DNA of 32,154 bases from Thermoleophilia bacterium (GTDB lineage: Bacteria > Actinomycetota > Thermoleophilia > Gaiellales > Gaiellaceae): the NCBI GenBank assembly GCA_017882615.1, contig JADGPD010000021.1, positions 1 through 32,154 on the forward strand, given 5' to 3'. Below, piece by piece: positions 432-21,108 of this stretch. How positions within the stretch are numbered: the first letter of the stretch is position 1; each line of letters opens with the position of its first letter. Position numbers and translations under genes: made by a program. A model generated the notes under the pieces. That model was not told the DNA's origin and did not search any database. It worked only from the letters and a program-made list of their open reading frames with translations.

Positions 432-893
432 TTAAGTGCGCTGTTTCCGGACGGCGACTACGCCGATCCCGCCGCTGATCGCGACGATGATCGCGAGTAA
501 CACGACGAGGCGCGCTTTGCTCCCGCCGCCCCCCGAGGAGGCTATTGCCGCTGTGAGCGAACCGCCGACGGACGAGTTGAGATTGCGGGTGGGCGCCGCC
601 TTGACCTTTGCGAGGCTGGCAGTCGGGGCACCGAACTTCGAATTGGTGGCCATGTTCTCGAGCGTTTTCTTGGTGGCGCGATTGTGCAGCCGAGCCAAGG
701 AGGCCTTGCTCTTCTTCGGGAGGACCGTCTTTTTCTTTCCGGCTATCTTGCCGCCCGAGCCCGGAACGGTCTCGGTGTACTGCGAGACGGCCGAGCCGTC
801 GCCGGCTGCCGCGATGCTTGGCACGGCGAGCATCGCCAGGGCTACAAGGGCAACTATTCCAACTCGAGTGCGTGAGGCCTGGATGAAAATCAA
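432..893 (-). CDS. Small secreted/membrane protein with signal peptide and C-terminal TM anchor
   Basis: The 153-residue product begins with a typical signal peptide: a basic start, a hydrophobic core at about residues 11-28 and an Ala-rich cleavage region ending AAAGDG. The middle is rich in Lys, Ala, Ser and Thr with no recognisable domain. A Gly/Ser stretch (about 119-124) then precedes a hydrophobic helix (about 128-147) and a short basic tail (RKQRT). The start is TTG at 893, chosen because a strong Shine-Dalgarno sequence (minus-strand GGAGGT, 904-909) lies 11 nt upstream. The mature part would sit outside the membrane. No family is recognised. The gene is divergent from the polymerase gene at 935, so a surface role linked to the polysaccharide is possible but inferred. 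The opposite-strand frame of similar size lacks these signals. Confidence 0.7.
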   Translation of the reverse strand: MIFIQASRTRVGIVALVALAMLAVPSIAAAGDGSAVSQYTETVPGSGGKIAGKKKTVLPKKSKASLARLHNRATKKTLENMATNSKFGAPTASLAKVKAAPTRNLNSSVGGSLTAAIASSGGGGSKARLVVLLAIIVAISGGIGVVAVRKQRT

Positions 894-934: not shown

Positions 935-2926
935 GTGGCGATTTTGAAACGAATCCGTCCCGCGGCGCTCTCGCCGGCGATTCTCCTCCCGCTCACGCTC
1001 GCCGCTATTACATTCGCGATTACCTACGACAACGGGAGTTACGACCTGCCCAGTCGTAACACCCTTGCAATAGCAGTCTGGTGGGCCGTAATCGTCGGGG
1101 TGGCGCTGCGGGTGTTCAGCACGGAGAGCGCAACGAGAGCGACGCTTGCATTCGCCGGGGTGCTCGCGGCGCTCTGCGCCTGGACTTTCGCCTCGGTGTT
1201 CTGGGCGCCGAGCGCCGAGAACGCATTCAACGAGTTCAACCGGGTATCTCTGTTCCTCGGCGTCTTCGTGCTGGTGGCAATCGCTATCAAGCGCAAAGCG
1301 CTGGGCCGCTGGTGCGACGGGCTCGCGCTCGCGGCTACGGCGATCACCATCGTCTCGCTGATCAGCCGGCTCTTCCCCGGCTCCTTCCCCGACCAGGGGT
1401 TGTCGGCGAATCTTCACAGCGTCGCCGCTCGGCTCAGCTTCCCGACCGGATACTGGAACGGGCTCGCCGTCTTCGTCGTTCTCGGCATTCCCCTGCTGCT
1501 GAGAATCGCCGTCAACGACAAGCGAATGCTCGTGTCCGCGCTCGCGGTCGCGCCGATTCCGGCGATCGTCTCCGTCGTGGTTCTCGCCTCGTCTCGAGGC
1601 GGGATTCTCACAGTCGCCGTCTGCTTAGTCGTGTTCTTCGCGCTCACGGAGAACCGCTGGCGCGCCGCCGTAGCGCTCCTCTGCGCGACGCTCGGCTCAA
1701 TCGGTGCCGTCGCCTCATTGCTAGCGCGCAACGCTTTGGTCAACGGACCGCTCGGATCGGAGTCGGTCGAGCGCCAGGGACACACCGCCGCCCTCCTCGT
1801 CGCTCTGGCCTGCCTGGGAGCAGGGGCGCTTTTCGCGGCGAGCCGCGTCGCCGCCGCTCGCATGAAGTACGAGCCGAGACCCTGGCTGGGCTGGGGCGTC
1901 GTAGCCTTACTCGTGCTGGCCATCGTTGTCGGCGCGGTTGCCAGTCACCCGGTTCGCCAGATCCATGCTTTCAAGCGTTCGCCGGCGACCCTCGTACCAA
2001 TAGCCTCCAACAATTTCGCGCGTGCCCACCTGATCAATGGACGCGGCAGCGGGCGCTGGCAGTTCTGGGGCTCGGCCATCAACGAGTGGGAACATCACCC
2101 GGTGCTTGGCGGCGGAGCGGGCTCTTTCGAAGAGTGGTGGCTCGCGCACACGAGCTTCTACTACGCGGTCAAGGATTCGCACTCTCTTTACATCGAGTCG
2201 CTCGCCGAGCTGGGCATCATCGGGCTCCTTCTGACCGCCGGTCTGGCGATCGGGGGTATCAGTGTCGGCGTTCGCAGATCGCTGCGAAGCTCGGGTGAGA
2301 CCAAGGTCACCTTCGCCGCGCTGACCGCCGTCTTCGCCGGCTACTCCGCGGCGGCCGCTGTCGACTGGATGTGGGAGCTGACTGCGGTAACCGTTGTTGG
2401 ATTGATGGCGCTGGCGCTTCTCAGCACGAGCGCAGCTTCGAACCATTCTCTGCGCGTCGTCGCGGTCGACGAGCAACGACCGGCTCGATATCGGCGCTTC
2501 GGCCTGAGCGTGGCCGGGTTGATCGGCGTCTGGCTTCTTATCTGCGCTCAGGCGATCCCGCTGCTCGCCCACCTTCGAATCAGCGACAGCGAAGCCTTCA
2601 CGACCAGCGGCAATACGAGCGGCGCGATTCGCGCGGCGCTGGATGCGAGGAACCTCCAGCCCTGGGCTTCGACCCCCTACCTACAACTTGCGATCGTCAG
2701 CGAACGGGAACAACGGCTCCAGGAGGCCCATTCCTGGATCAAGAAGGCGATCAAGCGAGATTCGTCGAACTGGGGAGCTTGGTATTTGGCCGCTCGGATC
2801 GAGACAGAGCTCGGCGACGCCCGCCAGGCCGAGAAAAGCCTGCAACGCGCCTTCTCGCTCAACCGGCGCTCGCCGCTCTTCTCCGACTTACGAAAAACGC
2901 CACTCACGGCGGCAATTCTCCCTTAA
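935..2926 (+). CDS. O-antigen ligase/polymerase (Wzy-type) with C-terminal TPRs
   Basis: The 663-residue protein is polytopic, with hydrophobic helices from about residue 10 onward. It has the O-antigen ligase/polymerase (Wzy_C family) signature in a large extracytoplasmic loop: EHHPVLGGGAGSFEEWW near residues 385-403 and KDSHSLYIESLAELG near 412-426, followed by more helices. After the last helix (about 530-550) comes a soluble tail of TPR-like helices (about 555-655). Family members join or transfer lipid-linked glycan units on the outer face of the membrane; TPR tails are common in bacterial members and may bind partners. The GTG start at 935 lies only 41 bp from the divergent gene and has no clear Shine-Dalgarno sequence. 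The next gene starts 51 bp downstream on the same strand. Whether it polymerises or ligates cannot be decided from sequence. Confidence 0.88.
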   Translation: MAILKRIRPAALSPAILLPLTLAAITFAITYDNGSYDLPSRNTLAIAVWWAVIVGVALRVFSTESATRATLAFAGVLAALCAWTFASVFWAPSAENAFNEFNRVSLFLGVFVLVAIAIKRKALGRWCDGLALAATAITIVSLISRLFPGSFPDQGLSANLHSVAARLSFPTGYWNGLAVFVVLGIPLLLRIAVNDKRMLVSALAVAPIPAIVSVVVLASSRGGILTVAVCLVVFFALTENRWRAAVALLCATLGSIGAVASLLARNALVNGPLGSESVERQGHTAALLVALACLGAGALFAASRVAAARMKYEPRPWLGWGVVALLVLAIVVGAVASHPVRQIHAFKRSPATLVPIASNNFARAHLINGRGSGRWQFWGSAINEWEHHPVLGGGAGSFEEWWLAHTSFYYAVKDSHSLYIESLAELGIIGLLLTAGLAIGGISVGVRRSLRSSGETKVTFAALTAVFAGYSAAAAVDWMWELTAVTVVGLMALALLSTSAASNHSLRVVAVDEQRPARYRRFGLSVAGLIGVWLLICAQAIPLLAHLRISDSEAFTTSGNTSGAIRAALDARNLQPWASTPYLQLAIVSEREQRLQEAHSWIKKAIKRDSSNWGAWYLAARIETELGDARQAEKSLQRAFSLNRRSPLFSDLRKTPLTAAILP

Positions 2927-2977: not shown

Positions 2978-4588
2978 ATGCCGGCCCTTTCCGGCGGGGG
3001 GACTGCTTGTAGGCCTCCATTCAGGGATCTACTATTGCCTATTATCAAGGTCAAAACTCGACTGATCTCCCTGTTTTTCCTGAACGGCGAAGGGCTTTCA
3101 GCGGCCCCTGAATCGGAGACCGAGCGGGAAGAGCTTGCGGATTTGTCTCGGCAGCGAAGCTACGATCTCGCTTCCGGCGCGGCCACGATCGCTGCGCCGG
3201 CCGAGCCGAGTTCGGAGAGTCGAGTCGGCGCACTACCTCGGCTGGCGTCGAACGAGTGGCGCGAGTCGCTTCTTCGCCGGATGCTCGCGTCGGGTGACAT
3301 CCTCGCCGTGGTCTTCGGTGCGCTCTGGATCGGCTTCTTCGCCGGCGGAAACGTAAGCGCATTCTTCTGGGTCGTCGCACTCGTCCCCGTCTGGACGATT
3401 CTCGCCAAGCTGCTCGGCCTCTACGACCGCGATCAACGAGCTCTTCGCCATCTCACGATCGATGAGTCGGCCCCGCTCGCGGTTTGGGCCGTGCTCGGTT
3501 CCGCGGCCGTCATTCTCTTCTTCCACCTGCCCGTCCCGGGGTCGCTCTCGTCAACGGGCGCAGGGCATCTGACTCTTGCCGTTTTCGGCTCTGCCTTCGT
3601 TCTCAGGGGTCTCACGCGCTACCTCTGGCGAAAGATCACGCCGCCGGAGCGCACCGTCGTCGTGGGCTCGGGCCCGGAGACTGAGGCCTTCTTGCGCAAG
3701 ATCGAGCTCTTCCCCGAGACGCATCTCGAGATCGTCGCGAACGTCCCCGAGATGGACATCGACGAGCTGCTCCGCGGAGACGGCCGGCTGCAATCGATCG
3801 ACCGAATCGTCGTCGCCTCCGCCGCCACGGACGGACAAGATGTCGCCCGGTTGATTGCGGTTGGACAGGAGCAGAACATCAGACTCAGCGTCATACCTTT
3901 GACTAGGAGCCTCTTCGGCACCGCGGTTCAGCTCAGCCGCATCGCTGACCTTCCCGTGCTCGAATACCGCACCTGGGCCGTCGCCCGCTCGACTCTCTTT
4001 TTGAAGCGTTCGCTCGACCTGCTCGTCAGCCTGATCTCGCTGTTAGTCCTACTACCTCTCTTCGTCTTGATCGCGCTTGCGATCAAGCTCGACAGCCGCG
4101 GCCCGGTCATCTACTCGCAACGCCGCGCCGGCGCCGGCGGACGGCCTTTCTTGATGTTCAAGTTCCGCACCATGGTTCGCGACGCCGAAGAGCAACTCAA
4201 GGACCTCGTGCCCTTCGACAAGCTGGCTGAGCCGATGTTCAAGCTGACCGACGATCCCCGCATTACGCGCTTCGGCCGCTTCCTCAGACATTGGAGCCTG
4301 GACGAGCTACCGCAGCTGGTGAACGTGCTGATCGGCAAGATGAGCCTGGTCGGGCCCCGTCCGGAGCAGGTCGAGTTGGTTGAGCGCTACGAGCCCGAGC
4401 ACCTCTTCCGCGTCTCGGTGAAGCCAGGCCTCACCGGCCCGATGCAGGTCTACGGACGAGGCCAGCTCGTATTCCAGGAACGCCTCGCTGTCGAGCGCGA
4501 ATACATCGAGAACCTCTCCATCGGCCGCGACCTGCGGATCCTGGTGCTTACTGTCGCCGTGGCGCTGGGCCGCAAGGGCGCTCTCTAG
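2978..4588 (+). CDS. WbaP-like polyprenyl-phosphate sugar-phosphotransferase (priming enzyme), copy 1
   Basis: This 536-residue protein has the layout of the large bacterial phosphoglycosyltransferases. A variable N-terminal tail (1-90) is followed by membrane helices (about 105-225), a CoA-binding-like/Rossmann middle section and, from about residue 337, the catalytic sugar-transferase domain. The catalytic part shows YSQRRAG, FKFRTMV, the Asp-Glu dyad D442-E443 in SLDELPQ, and [10 protein letters not shown]. Such enzymes move a sugar phosphate from a UDP-sugar to undecaprenyl phosphate, the first membrane step of glycan assembly. It follows the polymerase gene by 51 bp. Its TAG stop shares the palindrome CTAG (4585-4588) with the stop of the convergent gene. 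The sequence before residue 90 is poorly constrained, so the start could lie downstream. A full-length paralogue lies at 17238-18794. Sugar specificity is unknown. Confidence 0.93.
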
Positions 4589-6705
4589 CTCGGCGGTTCC
4601 GCGCCAGGCTCCGGTTCGGGCTCCAGCCAGGCAACCGTGGCGATAATCGAGAAGAAACCGAAGGCCGCGAACAGGTAGGGGTTGGTGGCAGAGACAAGCA
4701 GGACGCTGGCGATGATCGCCACTACGATCGCACCGCCGCGCGGCAGTGCCCCCCGGGCTGTCTTGGCTTTGCCGAAACGCTGGCGTAAAGCATCCCAGAC
4801 CAGTCGCAGCGGAAAGGAAAGGAAGAGAAGCAGCCCGACGATGCCCGCCTTGAAGAGAATGTCGAGATACGACAGCTCGTACCTGTAGCCCACGGCGGAG
4901 TAGTCGGTTGCGATCGCACCGAACCCGGAGCCGAGCAGGGGGTGCTTGCGGATGTGCCGGACCAGGCTCTTCGCCTGCCTTATCCGGTACGAGTTGGAGA
5001 TCTCACCCTCGAGATCGCCATTCGTATCACCCGCACCTTGAATGCCCGGTTGCGGCGCCACTGAAGTCGGCGCCGCCGTCGGGGTTGACGGCGATGCCGT
5101 GGTTGACGGCGGCGTCGCGGTCGAGGCCGATGTCGTGGTCGAGGCCGATGTCGTGGTTGACGGCGGCGTCGCGGTCGAGGCCGATGTCGTGGTTGACGGC
5201 GGCGTCGCAGCGACTTCCCGGGCAAGGTGTATATCGTCCCAGTACACCCGCCCAATCGCTGCGTAGAGCCTGATTTGAATATCACGCGCCTGTGCGACCG
5301 TCGTGAACGAGAGCACCACGCGCTTCCACTGTTCAGCCGTGTTCCCGATCCCGATTTCGGAGGTTGACCCGCCCTCTACATCCCAGACAACCAGACGCGT
5401 TGGAAGCGAAGACCACGAGCTAACCCAGGCGCTGACCGTGTAGCTCGTGCTCGGCAACACCGACAGATTCTGGTAGGCGTAGTCGTCCTCTCCGGAGGCG
5501 GTATCGATCAACTCGAGCGAGTGCGACCCGGACCTGTGTTGGACAGTCACCCGGCGCATTCGCAACGAGATCGTCGTCCAGTCGAACGGTGTCCAGGCGC
5601 CACTTTTCTCGAAGCCCGGGTTGACGACGGCTGTCGGGAATTGAGACGTCTGCGTGCTGGTGATCGACGCCGAGCGTTTGAACACGTAGTCGCTCAGCGA
5701 GAACCCGGCCACCGGCATCACGATCATCGCGACAGCGAAGCCTGCAACCGTCACGCCCGAGAAGGTCAACGCGCGCCTCAGCGTTGGCGCTGCGAAAGCG
5801 ACGATCAAAACGACGGCGGCGAACCCCCCGATCCAGAGCCCGCGTGTGTACGTAGCGACGAGGTCGATCAAAAACACGGCATAGAGCAGCCAGTACCAAT
5901 ATGACCGTGGCCGCAAAAGCAGTCGCCAGGTGGTCAGAGCCAGACCGACCTGCAGATAGAGGCTGGCGCCGGTGAAAAGCCTGAAGTCCCCGTTGGTCAT
6001 GTGGCCGATGACCCCACCCATGTCGAGCCGGCTGGACAGAAGAGCCTGGTTAATCGACGTGAGAGTGGTCAGATGCGACGCGGAGGCCAGGATCAGCACG
6101 AGGTTTGCGACCCCGTTCGTCGCGCAGGCAGCGAGGAATACGTTCCGGAACCACTGCCCGTCGCCGCGCCGTACGAGCAGGATGACCACCAGGGCGAAGG
6201 CGAAGTAAGCGAAGCCGTTGCCATCGCCGAAGACGTTGCCCGCGCCATTGTGGTTGAGCAGACCGATGGTCATCCAGATCGCCGGGAACAGGAAGGCGAG
6301 CGCCAACGCATGCGCGCCGTAGCGGCCGAGGACCTTTCGCTCTCCCCGCCGCCAGTCGGCAATGACGATGCTCGCGACTCGAAGCATCACAACTCCATCC
6401 AGGAGGACGCGCCCGCTCAGATGCGTTCCGTACTCGACCCAGCCCCCGCTGGTGCCACCGAGGACTAGCTCGAAAACTGCGATGGCGACGCTCGCCCGAA
6501 AGTCGACGATGCTCAGGCCCACGAAGGAGAATGGGAGGATCACCTTGAGCAAGCTCGGCAGAGGGCCCACGTCCAGCGCCGTCGCCTTCAGGACCGCGAG
6601 CCCGACGACGCAGGCCGCGCTCAGCGCGAACAGGCCGATGCGCACACGCGGGCCGACGAGCTCCGTCCGCAATCTCGTGCGAAACCCGCCCGCGGTCGCG
6701 CTCAT
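4585..6705 (-). CDS. O-antigen ligase/polymerase with inserted carbohydrate-binding domain and Thr/Ser repeat linker
   Basis: The 706-residue protein starts with about ten membrane helices. At about residue 360 a domain begins with NPGFEKSGAW and runs to about 495. Its pattern (NPGFE start, SGSHSLEL, a central YTVSAWV strand, EQWKRVVLSF, and VYWDDIHL near the end) is typical of family 4/9-like carbohydrate-binding modules. A linker of Thr/Ser/Pro 6-residue repeats follows (about 498-553), then the conserved HPLLGSGFG motif (about 587) and the last helices. The insert therefore sits in the large extracytoplasmic loop that carries the active-site region. I chose the ATG at 6705 because it overlaps the upstream gene's TGA as ATGA; an in-frame extension upstream would overlap that gene by 145 bp. 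Polymerase or ligase function follows from the family; glycan binding by the insert is inferred. Confidence 0.88.
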   Translation of the reverse strand: MSATAGGFRTRLRTELVGPRVRIGLFALSAACVVGLAVLKATALDVGPLPSLLKVILPFSFVGLSIVDFRASVAIAVFELVLGGTSGGWVEYGTHLSGRVLLDGVVMLRVASIVIADWRRGERKVLGRYGAHALALAFLFPAIWMTIGLLNHNGAGNVFGDGNGFAYFAFALVVILLVRRGDGQWFRNVFLAACATNGVANLVLILASASHLTTLTSINQALLSSRLDMGGVIGHMTNGDFRLFTGASLYLQVGLALTTWRLLLRPRSYWYWLLYAVFLIDLVATYTRGLWIGGFAAVVLIVAFAAPTLRRALTFSGVTVAGFAVAMIVMPVAGFSLSDYVFKRSASITSTQTSQFPTAVVNPGFEKSGAWTPFDWTTISLRMRRVTVQHRSGSHSLELIDTASGEDDYAYQNLSVLPSTSYTVSAWVSSWSSLPTRLVVWDVEGGSTSEIGIGNTAEQWKRVVLSFTTVAQARDIQIRLYAAIGRVYWDDIHLAREVAATPPSTTTSASTATPPSTTTSASTTTSASTATPPSTTASPSTPTAAPTSVAPQPGIQGAGDTNGDLEGEISNSYRIRQAKSLVRHIRKHPLLGSGFGAIATDYSAVGYRYELSYLDILFKAGIVGLLLFLSFPLRLVWDALRQRFGKAKTARGALPRGGAIVVAIIASVLLVSATNPYLFAAFGFFSIIATVAWLEPEPEPGAEPPS
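5081..5206. repeat. In-frame 18-bp modular tandem repeat (Thr/Ser/Pro linker)
   Basis: Seven 18-bp modules lie head to tail. On the plus strand type a is GTGGTTGACGGCGGCGTC and type b is G(C/T)GGTCGAGGCCGATGTC. The order is a divergent a (5081-5098), a, b, b, a, b, a, ending at 5206. Each module encodes six residues on the minus strand, giving alternating ATPPST- and TTSAST-like blocks in the polymerase. Because 18 is a multiple of three, gain or loss of modules would change linker length without a frameshift. Confidence 0.9.
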
Positions 6706-18937: not shown

Positions 18938-19819
18938 GTGAAACTCGAAGAGATAATCCGACCGATCGAGCGCGACGAGCATCCCGCGGAGGTAAAGCCG
19001 ATGGAGCTCTTCATCAGGCCCGAAGGACCGCTCAAGCTCGACCTGAGAGAGCTCTGGAGCTACCGCGAGCTCTTCTACTTCTTCGCCTGGCGCGACATCA
19101 AAGTTCGCTACAAGCAGACGGCGCTGGGGGCGCTCTGGGCGATGTTCGCCCCATTCGTCACCGTTGTCGTCTTCACCGTCTTCTTCAACAAAGTGGCGCA
19201 CATCAAATCGCCGAACGCCATCCCGTACGCCATCTTCACCTACACGGGCCTGCTGTTCTGGAACTTCTTCGCCGCCGCCCTGGCCTCAACCAGCAACAGC
19301 ATGATGACCAACAAGTCTGTCATCTCAAAAATCTACTTCCCGCGCCTCATCGCTCCCTTTTCCGCGACGATCGTCAACATGGTCGACTTCTGCTTCGCTT
19401 TCGTGCTGTACGCCGCACTTTTCCTCTTCTACGGCGTCAGGCCAGGACTTGCGGGAGTCGCTCTGCTCTTACCGATGCTCGCGCTTACCTTCCTCGCCGC
19501 CACGGGACTGGGGCTCTTCTTCGGCGCCCTCAACGTCCGCTATCGCGATGTCCAGTTCGTCGTGCCGTATCTGATCAGCACGCTCCTCTTCCTCACGCCG
19601 GTGATCTATCCGATCACGCAGGTCCCCGCCCGTTTTCAGTGGGTCCTCTATCTGAATCCGATGACCGGGATCATCCAGGCCATGCGCGCCGGCACTCTGC
19701 ACCAGGGAGCCATCCCGTGGTCGATGTTCTGCATCTCTCTCACGAGCATCGTCTGCATGCTCGTATTCGGCGTTTACTACTTCCTGCGCCAAGAACGAAG
19801 CTTCGCCGACTACATATGA
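18938..19819 (+). CDS. wzm: ABC-2 type polysaccharide export permease (Wzm/TagG-like)
   Basis: The 293-residue protein has a cytoplasmic N-terminus and about six membrane helices. The conserved junction WRDIKVRYKQTALGALWAMFAPF (about residues 50-72, quoted in part) is characteristic of Wzm/TagG/KpsM-type permeases. Near the C-terminus it has LFLTPVIYPITQVP and LNPMTGIIQAMR, again family hallmarks. With the ATPase it forms the transporter that exports completed undecaprenyl-linked glycan across the inner membrane. The GTG start at 18938 has a GAGG seven nt upstream. The TGA stop overlaps the ATPase ATG as ATGA (19816-19819), so the two subunits are translationally coupled. Confidence 0.94.
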   Translation: MKLEEIIRPIERDEHPAEVKPMELFIRPEGPLKLDLRELWSYRELFYFFAWRDIKVRYKQTALGALWAMFAPFVTVVVFTVFFNKVAHIKSPNAIPYAIFTYTGLLFWNFFAAALASTSNSMMTNKSVISKIYFPRLIAPFSATIVNMVDFCFAFVLYAALFLFYGVRPGLAGVALLLPMLALTFLAATGLGLFFGALNVRYRDVQFVVPYLISTLLFLTPVIYPITQVPARFQWVLYLNPMTGIIQAMRAGTLHQGAIPWSMFCISLTSIVCMLVFGVYYFLRQERSFADYI

Positions 19820-21108
19820 CGCCGATCGTCGAGATCAACGGCCTCTCCAAGGCCTACGTCATCAGCCATCAACCCAAAGCGGGGTACGGCTCCCTTCGCG
19901 ACGACATCGTCAACATTCTGCGCCGCCCGCTTCAACCCCACATAACCCAGGGCGCCTCCCGAGAGACCGTATGGGCTCTCGACGACGTGAGCTGCGACGT
20001 TCAGCAGGGGGAGATCTTCGGCGTCATCGGCGGCAACGGCGCCGGGAAATCCACGTTGCTGAAGATCCTCTCGCGGATCACATATCCGACAAAGGGGCAC
20101 GCCATTCTGCGTGGACGAGTTGGAAGCCTCCTGGAGGTCGGGACCGGCTTTCACCCGGAGCTCACCGGCCGCGAGAACATCTTCTTGAACGGCGCCATCC
20201 TCGGCATAAGAAAGCAGGAGATCACGAGGCGCTTCGACGAGATCGTCGCCTTCTCCGAAATCGAGCGGTTTCTCGACACGCCGGTCAAGTTCTATTCGTC
20301 CGGGATGTACGTTCGTCTGGCTTTCGCCGTCGCCGCCCACCTGGAGCCGGACGTCCTGATCGTCGACGAGGTCCTCTCCGTCGGGGACGCACGGTTCCAA
20401 AAGAAGTCGCTCGGGAAGATGGGCGACGCCGCGACCTCCGGCACCACGGTACTCCTGGTGAGCCACAACATGGCCTCGATCGAGAGCCTGTGCACGCGAG
20501 CCATGTTCTTGGAGCACGGCCAACTGGTCGAGATCGGCCCAACAACGAAGATCATCGAGAAGTACCTGTCCATCGCATCTACAGCCGCCAGCCAGAACCT
20601 CGCCGAGCGCACCGATCGGCAAGGCGACGGCCGACTCCGCTTTACCAGCGCCGGCCTTCGCTCGGGTGAGCGTGGGCAGTACTCGGACGTCGCCCAGTGC
20701 GGTCAGGATCTGGAGTTCGTCGCCGCTTTCACCAGCGATAGCGGCCTCAAGCACGTCAACGCTTCCATGGCCGTATACACGGCGGCGGGGCAGTGCCTGA
20801 TGGTTCTGGATAGTGAAATGGCAGGGATCAGTCTCGGTTCCGCGCCGAGGCACGGGCGCTTTTCGTGCCGGATCGAGCGGTTACCTCTGGCGCCGGGTCA
20901 GTACTTCCTCAATCTGTTCTGCACGGCCAACGGCGAGATCGTCGATTGGGTTCAAAACGCGGTCACCTTCCACGTCGAAGCGGGTGACTTCTTTGGGACC
21001 GGCAAGCTGCCTTCATCGAGCCACGGCGGACTGCTCGTTCCGCAGGAGTGGAGCTGCGACGACGACGATTCGAGCGGTGCACGCCCCTCGGACGTGACGT
21101 CGGGATGA
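19816..21108 (+). CDS. wzt: ABC transporter ATPase with C-terminal glycan-binding domain (Wzt-like)
   Basis: The 430-residue protein starts at ATG 19816, four bases inside the permease stop; an in-frame extension further upstream would run through the permease gene and is rejected. The nucleotide-binding domain shows Walker A GNGAGKST (about 73-80), signature YSSGMYVRLAF (about 160), Walker B VLIVDEVLSVGD (about 180-191) and H-loop LVSHNM (about 214). From about residue 265 there is a second, beta-rich domain (LRFTSAGL, then LEFVAAFTSD, and PGQYFLNLFC) like the Wzt C-terminal domain. In characterised O9a-type systems that domain binds the modified non-reducing end of the glycan and licenses export. 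The next gene, a methyltransferase, overlaps by four bases, which fits a methyl-capped glycan; this link is inferred. Confidence 0.93.
   Translation: MTPIVEINGLSKAYVISHQPKAGYGSLRDDIVNILRRPLQPHITQGASRETVWALDDVSCDVQQGEIFGVIGGNGAGKSTLLKILSRITYPTKGHAILRGRVGSLLEVGTGFHPELTGRENIFLNGAILGIRKQEITRRFDEIVAFSEIERFLDTPVKFYSSGMYVRLAFAVAAHLEPDVLIVDEVLSVGDARFQKKSLGKMGDAATSGTTVLLVSHNMASIESLCTRAMFLEHGQLVEIGPTTKIIEKYLSIASTAASQNLAERTDRQGDGRLRFTSAGLRSGERGQYSDVAQCGQDLEFVAAFTSDSGLKHVNASMAVYTAAGQCLMVLDSEMAGISLGSAPRHGRFSCRIERLPLAPGQYFLNLFCTANGEIVDWVQNAVTFHVEAGDFFGTGKLPSSSHGGLLVPQEWSCDDDDSSGARPSDVTSG

What the first reader, a model, noticed from the sequence alone, without database searches (positions are those of the whole stretch)
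5040..5630. Carbohydrate-binding-like domain and repeat linker inserted into an O-antigen polymerase/ligase loop
In the 706-residue protein a CBM4/9-like domain (about residues 360-495) and a Thr/Ser/Pro linker of 18-bp modules lie between the membrane helices and the HPLLGSGFG motif of the active loop. Family members usually have a plain loop there. The insert could hold the acceptor or the growing chain outside the cell and so influence chain length, and the linker could set the distance. Domain identity and function are inferred from sequence patterns.
Basis: partly seen in the sequence, partly recalled or inferred. Interest (0 to 1): 0.62.

Follow-up and report, generated by a model that had tools for sequence, protein, structure and literature searches.

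The report
Sugar-binding-like domain inside polysaccharide polymerase
A membrane enzyme that probably strings sugar units into a long surface polysaccharide carries, in the outside loop that holds its active site, an inserted domain resembling known sugar-binding modules plus a stretchable linker, suggesting that it may grip the polymer it makes, although sugar binding itself has not been shown.

Summary
The 706-residue protein (window 4588-6705, minus strand) has an inserted all-beta domain (residues 358-498) and an 18-bp-modular Thr/Ser/Pro linker (499-553) between the last helix before the catalytic loop and HPLLGSGFG. The domain resembles CBM4/9 and CBM16 modules, but sequence scores stay below Pfam's curated cut-off and the model is only moderately confident. 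Charge distribution puts the loop outside the cell. Two orthologues keep the domain under purifying selection. Three 50%-identical paralogues lack it, holding only a short Ser-rich linker at the same spot. A 39%-identical relative from another genus has two such domains in tandem there. The catalytic residues align as Arg288, Arg574 and Glu610; Glu replaces the ligase His, so this is a Wzy-type polymerase (GT-C1-like) rather than a ligase. In another family of the class, ligase-like Wzy_C proteins carry an unrelated NBR1-like Ig domain in the same slot, so the slot has accepted a domain more than once. Sugar binding and chain-length control are inference: CBM16-like domains do not always bind sugar. 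I found no description of this architecture in the open-access papers searched. Verdict: new variant of a known kind.

The parts
4588..6705 (-). Wzy-type (Wzy_C / GT-C1-like) membrane polymerase, 706 aa
   Evidence: Open frame, ATGA overlap with upstream GT2 gene; Wzy_C E 9e-5 on the C-terminal part, below cut-off; paralogue 1e-6; about 14 hydrophobic helices
5710..5781 (-). Membrane helix just before the large extracytoplasmic loop (residues 309-332)
   Evidence: Hydropathy and AF2 secondary structure
5212..5634 (-). Inserted CBM4/9-CBM16-like beta-sandwich domain (residues 358-498)
   Evidence: Pfam CBM_4_9 E 6e-4, NCBIfam 2e-7, CBM16 PDB profile hit 5e-6 (lost with orthologues only), AF2 all-beta pLDDT 62, Foldseek top hits CBM16/CBM4/CBM61
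5047..5211 (-). Thr/Ser/Pro linker of 6-residue (18-bp) modules (residues 499-553)
   Evidence: TRF 5078-5201; +24 aa in orthologue L003; dN/dS about 0.55
5842..5844 (-). Arg288 of TRG motif, aligned with the first diphosphate-binding Arg of O-antigen ligase
   Evidence: Alignment with P0002 by motif
4984..4986 (-). Arg574, second conserved Arg, 14 residues before HPLLG
   Evidence: Ungapped alignment to R374 of P0002; invariant in orthologues and paralogues
4918..4944 (-). HPLLGSGFG motif (residues 588-596)
4876..4878 (-). Glu610 at the position of the ligase catalytic His
   Evidence: 11 residues before GIVG, as His416 before GIIG in P0002; Glu also in paralogues and in G014

Best explanation
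The gene encodes an inverting Wzy-type polysaccharide polymerase of the GT-C1 kind (two diphosphate-binding Args plus an acceptor-activating Glu). A CBM16/CBM4-9-like beta-sandwich has been inserted into its large extracytoplasmic loop, on a flexible linker of variable length, just before the catalytic Arg574/HPLLG/Glu610 segment. Most likely mechanism: the tethered domain binds repeat units of the growing or neighbouring polysaccharide next to the active site, raising local acceptor concentration or processivity, with the linker acting as a flexible tether. Shown here: insertion, loop side, domain resemblance, catalytic motif, conservation in two orthologues, absence in paralogues. Inferred: sugar binding, its ligand, and any effect on processivity or length. 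The confidence given is for the architecture, polymerase assignment and CBM-like identity together; I put about 0.4 on 'it binds the polymer being made' and about 0.15 on 'it sets chain length'.
For: CBM-like identity. Loop side: 19 K/R in 83 inside-loop residues against 3 in 68 outside. Catalytic triad: with PMC10920833 stating that GT-C1 polymerases mostly have Glu or Asp where O-antigen ligase has His. Orthologues keep the domain, dN/dS 0.18 and 0.44-0.45 against 0.12-0.22 for the core, linker 0.55-0.57. Paralogues of the same genus lack it but keep a short Ser-rich linker. Relative G014 has two tandem domains in the same loop, 45% identical to each other over 58 residues, similar to the window domain at 0 of 1000 shuffles. 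The locus is a Wzx/Wzy locus: initiating sugar transferases, flippases and several glycosyltransferases.
Against: All CBM family scores are below curated cut-offs. The CBM16 sequence hit depends on including the G014 rows and disappears with orthologues only. Models have pLDDT 62 (domain) and 51 (full length), and Foldseek superpositions have rmsd mostly 5-10 A. The domain evolves faster than the core. The sugar-binding surface could not be examined. PMC5651945 reports CBM16-like domains with no demonstrated sugar binding, in some cases proposed to help folding. A non-CBM domain fills the slot in other Wzy_C proteins.
Confidence: 0.72

Rival explanations
1. The inserted domain does not bind the product but works as a structural or protein-interaction module: a cap or scaffold over the active site, or a docking site for partner proteins. 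Any stable beta-sandwich on a linker would serve.
For: The same slot holds an NBR1-like Ig domain, not a CBM, in ligase-like Wzy_C proteins of another family. The CBM16-like domain of a PL18 alginate lyase was proposed to act in folding, and sugar binding by such domains had not been reported (PMC5651945). Paralogues work, presumably, with a linker only.
Against: Three searches rank carbohydrate-binding modules first for this domain; tandem copies in G014 are typical of avidity in binding modules (general knowledge).
Confidence: 0.3
2. The domain tethers the polymerase to an existing cell-surface or cell-wall polysaccharide (localisation or acceptor capture), not to its own nascent chain.
For: CBMs commonly anchor enzymes to bulk polysaccharide (general knowledge); a long flexible Pro/Thr linker of variable length fits a tether.
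Against: No evidence on ligand; an integral membrane enzyme needs no anchor to stay at the envelope.
Confidence: 0.2
3. The insertion is a nearly neutral accident: the loop tolerates soluble domains and the domain has no role.
For: Faster evolution than the core and linker length drift; confined to one genus plus one relative among several hundred genomes.
Against: dN/dS 0.18-0.45 with fold-typical residues (GFE, Q-N-L-x-x-L-P, DD) kept in all three orthologous sequences; two copies in G014.
Confidence: 0.12
4. The protein is an O-antigen-ligase-type transferase that puts finished polymer on an acceptor, with the CBM holding the acceptor.
For: Pfam names the family 'O-Antigen ligase'.
Against: Glu610 replaces the ligase His, also in paralogues and G014, while the neighbouring P0002 has His; PMC10920833 assigns Glu/Asp to polymerases. 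The nearest named records are Actinomycetota MAGs, where lipid A ligation is not expected.
Confidence: 0.1

Closest known systems
Inverting bacterial polysaccharide polymerases of clan GT-C1 (CAZy GT125-GT129; PMC10920833)
   Same: Two conserved Args, Glu at the O-antigen-ligase His position, long extracytoplasmic loop near the C-terminus
   Different: A 140-residue CBM-like domain and repeat linker are inserted in that loop; not assigned to a specific GT family here
O-antigen ligase WaaL (GT121)
   Same: Overall Wzy_C organisation, TRG and HPLxGxG motifs
   Different: Glu610 instead of the catalytic His; inserted domain
CBM16 modules of Caldanaerobius polysaccharolyticus Man5A (PDB 2zew/2zex/2zey)
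   Same: Best profile and Foldseek match
   Different: Attached to a secreted hydrolase, not a membrane polymerase; about 20% identity; binding site not verified here
Wzt C-terminal carbohydrate-binding domain (present at window 19639-21105)
   Same: A beta-sandwich glycan-recognition domain built into a polysaccharide assembly machine
   Different: Cytoplasmic ABC-transporter route, C-terminal, different Pfam family (Wzt_C)
Ligase-like Wzy_C proteins with an NBR1-like Ig domain in the loop (loci L066-L071)
   Same: Soluble beta domain in the same slot before the second Arg/HPLxGxG
   Different: Unrelated domain family (PF16158), His-type enzyme, no Thr/Pro repeat linker
Wzz / polysaccharide co-polymerase regulators of Wzy (PMC10030265)
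   Same: Proposed effect on chain length through an extracytoplasmic domain next to Wzy
   Different: Wzz is a separate oligomeric protein; no Wzz was found among the window genes scanned

Membership tests
Wzy_C / GT-C1 polysaccharide polymerase | Multi-pass membrane protein with long extracytoplasmic loop near the C-terminus | tested here: met
   About 14 helices, loop 332-608 outside by charge
Wzy_C / GT-C1 polysaccharide polymerase | Pfam Wzy_C over curated cut-off | tested here: not met
   22.7 bits against 31.7 on the C-terminal part; the insertion splits the model; paralogue 28.9 bits
Wzy_C / GT-C1 polysaccharide polymerase | Two conserved Args and Glu/Asp at the ligase His position | tested here: met
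   R288, R574, E610
Wzy_C / GT-C1 polysaccharide polymerase | Polymerises lipid-PP-linked repeat units | not testable with these tools
   Needs biochemistry
O-antigen ligase (GT121) | Catalytic His | tested here: not met
   Glu610 in place of His
CBM16 / CBM4_9 | Sequence score over curated Pfam cut-off | tested here: not met
   20.6 bits against 25.9; 22.0 and 20.0 in orthologues
CBM16 / CBM4_9 | CBM-type beta-sandwich fold | tested here: inconclusive
   Ten-strand all-beta model, top Foldseek hits CBM16/CBM4/CBM61 at E 2e-5, but pLDDT 62 and TM about 0.5
CBM16 / CBM4_9 | Binds carbohydrate | not testable with these tools
   No binding data

The most novel reading that the evidence does not exclude
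The loop before the catalytic Arg/Glu segment of Wzy-type enzymes is a recurrent docking slot in this actinobacterial class. Soluble modules (CBM-like single or tandem, NBR1-like Ig) on length-variable linkers are plugged in there, and the CBM version holds the nascent chain and sets its length in place of a separate Wzz regulator.
Probability: 0.13. Interest if true: 0.78.

Novelty: new variant of a known kind. Interest (0 to 1): 0.5.

Why it matters
How Wzy polymerases control chain length and hold their product is still debated. A polymerase with its own CBM-like domain, beside a paralogue in the same genus without it and a relative with two copies, is a natural domain-gain series in which the role of a tethered glycan-binding module can be tested by deletion and swapping.

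Tried and rejected
Searches with the full 706-residue protein in 30 or more genomes gave no answer from the machine; core-only queries worked. Viral contigs gave no relatives. Plasmids gave one weak CBM hit in Streptomyces. Profile-profile comparison of the window domain with the G014 domain found nothing, because the profiles are too shallow, although a shuffle test did. The CBM16 PDB hit did not survive removal of the G014 rows, so it is not counted as fully independent. Four Wzy_C matches with long spans in other genomes turned out to hold extra membrane helices, not soluble domains. A crude architecture screen for Wzz-like proteins over about 95 kb of the related genome G001 found no convincing candidate, but no profile search for Wzz was run there.

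Full report
What was checked. The finding concerns the protein read on the minus strand from 6705 to 4588. The ATG at 6705 overlaps the stop codon of the upstream GT2 glycosyltransferase gene (ATGA), which supports the 706-residue start over the 753-residue one. The linker DNA has an 18-bp period with 6.9 copies and a 54-bp super-period with 89% match.

Domain identity. As a segment, the domain matches Pfam CBM_4_9 at E 6e-4, below the curated cut-off. The two orthologues score 2e-4 and 1e-3. NCBIfam's CBM-like GTA_spike_fiber domain matches at 2e-7, and at 1.6e-7 in an orthologue. A profile of the window domain, its orthologues and the G014 domains finds CBM16 modules in the PDB at 5e-6; with orthologues alone the hit is lost. 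AlphaFold2 gives a ten-strand all-beta model with mean pLDDT 62, its first 48 residues poor. Foldseek places CBM16, CBM4-2, a porphyran-binding CBM and CBM61 high in the list (best E 2e-5, probability 1.0, TM about 0.5, rmsd mostly 5-10 A). The full-length model is weak (pLDDT 51), but its best PDB matches are again CBMs. I conclude a CBM4/9-CBM16-like beta-sandwich with good but not formal support.

Topology. Hydropathy and AF2 helices give about 14 membrane helices. With the N-terminus inside, K/R counts are 19 in 83 residues of inside loops and 3 in 68 residues of short outside loops, so the 277-residue loop 332-608 is extracytoplasmic.

Enzyme type. Aligning on HPLLG and GIVG without gaps against the neighbouring ligase-like protein P0002 (window 935-2923, Wzy_C plus TPR) gives R574 to R374, E610 to H416 and R288 to R221. 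PMC10920833 reports that O-antigen ligases bind the lipid diphosphate with two Args and use a His, while GT-C1 polymerases mostly have Glu or Asp there. E610 is Glu in the orthologues, the paralogues and G014. The protein is therefore best read as a Wzy-type polymerase. The surrounding genes fit: sugar-phosphate transferases, Wzx-type flippases, many glycosyltransferases, and also a Wzm/Wzt pair with its own Wzt_C domain.

Comparative evidence. Relatives in named records are Actinomycetota MAGs; the genome search found the same orthologues in the genus. Both orthologues carry domain and linker; the linker of L003 is 24 residues (four modules) longer. dN/dS is 0.12-0.22 for the membrane core, 0.18 and 0.44-0.45 for the domain and 0.55-0.57 for the linker. 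Paralogues at about 50% identity lie in the same genus, on the same contig about 30 kb away in two genomes. They have no domain, only a short Ser-rich linker at the same position. A 39%-identical relative in another genus of the family (G014) has two tandem domains at the position, the second cut by an assembly gap. They resemble the window domain at 0 of 1000 shuffles. No further relative was seen in 101 genomes of the family or 299 of the class.

Base rate and a wider pattern. In a Wzy_C search of 41 genomes of the class, nearly all listed matches span too little DNA to hold a domain. Seven matches starting at model positions 74-82, all in one other family, were followed up. Their proteins carry a domain of about 110-130 residues in the same slot, matching the NBR1-like Ig family PF16158 at 8e-6 to 1e-3 in the four tested, slightly below cut-off. 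One examined in full has the ligase His. So the slot has received soluble beta domains at least twice, of different families. Proteins with insertions score lower in such a search, so this census undercounts them.

Mechanism. The best-supported account is a polymerase whose active-site loop carries a tethered CBM-like module. Holding nearby polymer or repeat units to raise processivity or acceptor concentration is the most natural role, but it is inference. CBM16-like domains without demonstrated binding exist (PMC5651945), and the Ig-like insertions show that the slot is not reserved for CBMs. Chain-length control is one step further. Wzz, the known regulator (PMC10030265), was not among the window genes scanned, but the rest of the genome was not tested for it.

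Novelty. Searches of the open-access library for Wzy or O-antigen ligase together with carbohydrate-binding domains or domain insertion returned no description of this architecture. Subscription papers are mostly not held, so absence there is not proven.

Noticed in passing
L066-L071 (e.g. L068:672-2489): Wzy_C ligase-like proteins of another family in the class carry an NBR1-like Ig domain (PF16158, slightly below cut-off) in the same loop slot.
   Followed up: partly
window 935-2923: A second Wzy_C protein, with the ligase-type His and C-terminal TPR repeats, sits two genes away; closest NCBIfam model (below cut-off) is the exosortase-associated O-glycosylation ligase TIGR03097.
   Followed up: partly
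window 435-893 (-): Small secreted-looking protein with N-terminal hydrophobic segment, Gly-rich stretch and C-terminal membrane helix ending RKQRT, next to the TPR ligase; conserved in genome G001.
   Followed up: no
window 18938-21105: Wzm/Wzt-type ABC exporter with a Wzt_C glycan-recognition domain in the same locus as Wzx/Wzy genes and two initiating sugar transferases.
   Followed up: no
L008, L010 (paralogue): The paralogous polymerase has a run of about 14 serines at the slot where the window protein has its domain and linker.
   Followed up: partly
L022/L025 (G014:C64): Relative with two tandem CBM-like domains in the loop; the second is interrupted by a 298-base assembly gap.
   Followed up: yes
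G000: The 2-Mb genome holds at least eight Wzy_C matches, many for its size.
   Followed up: no
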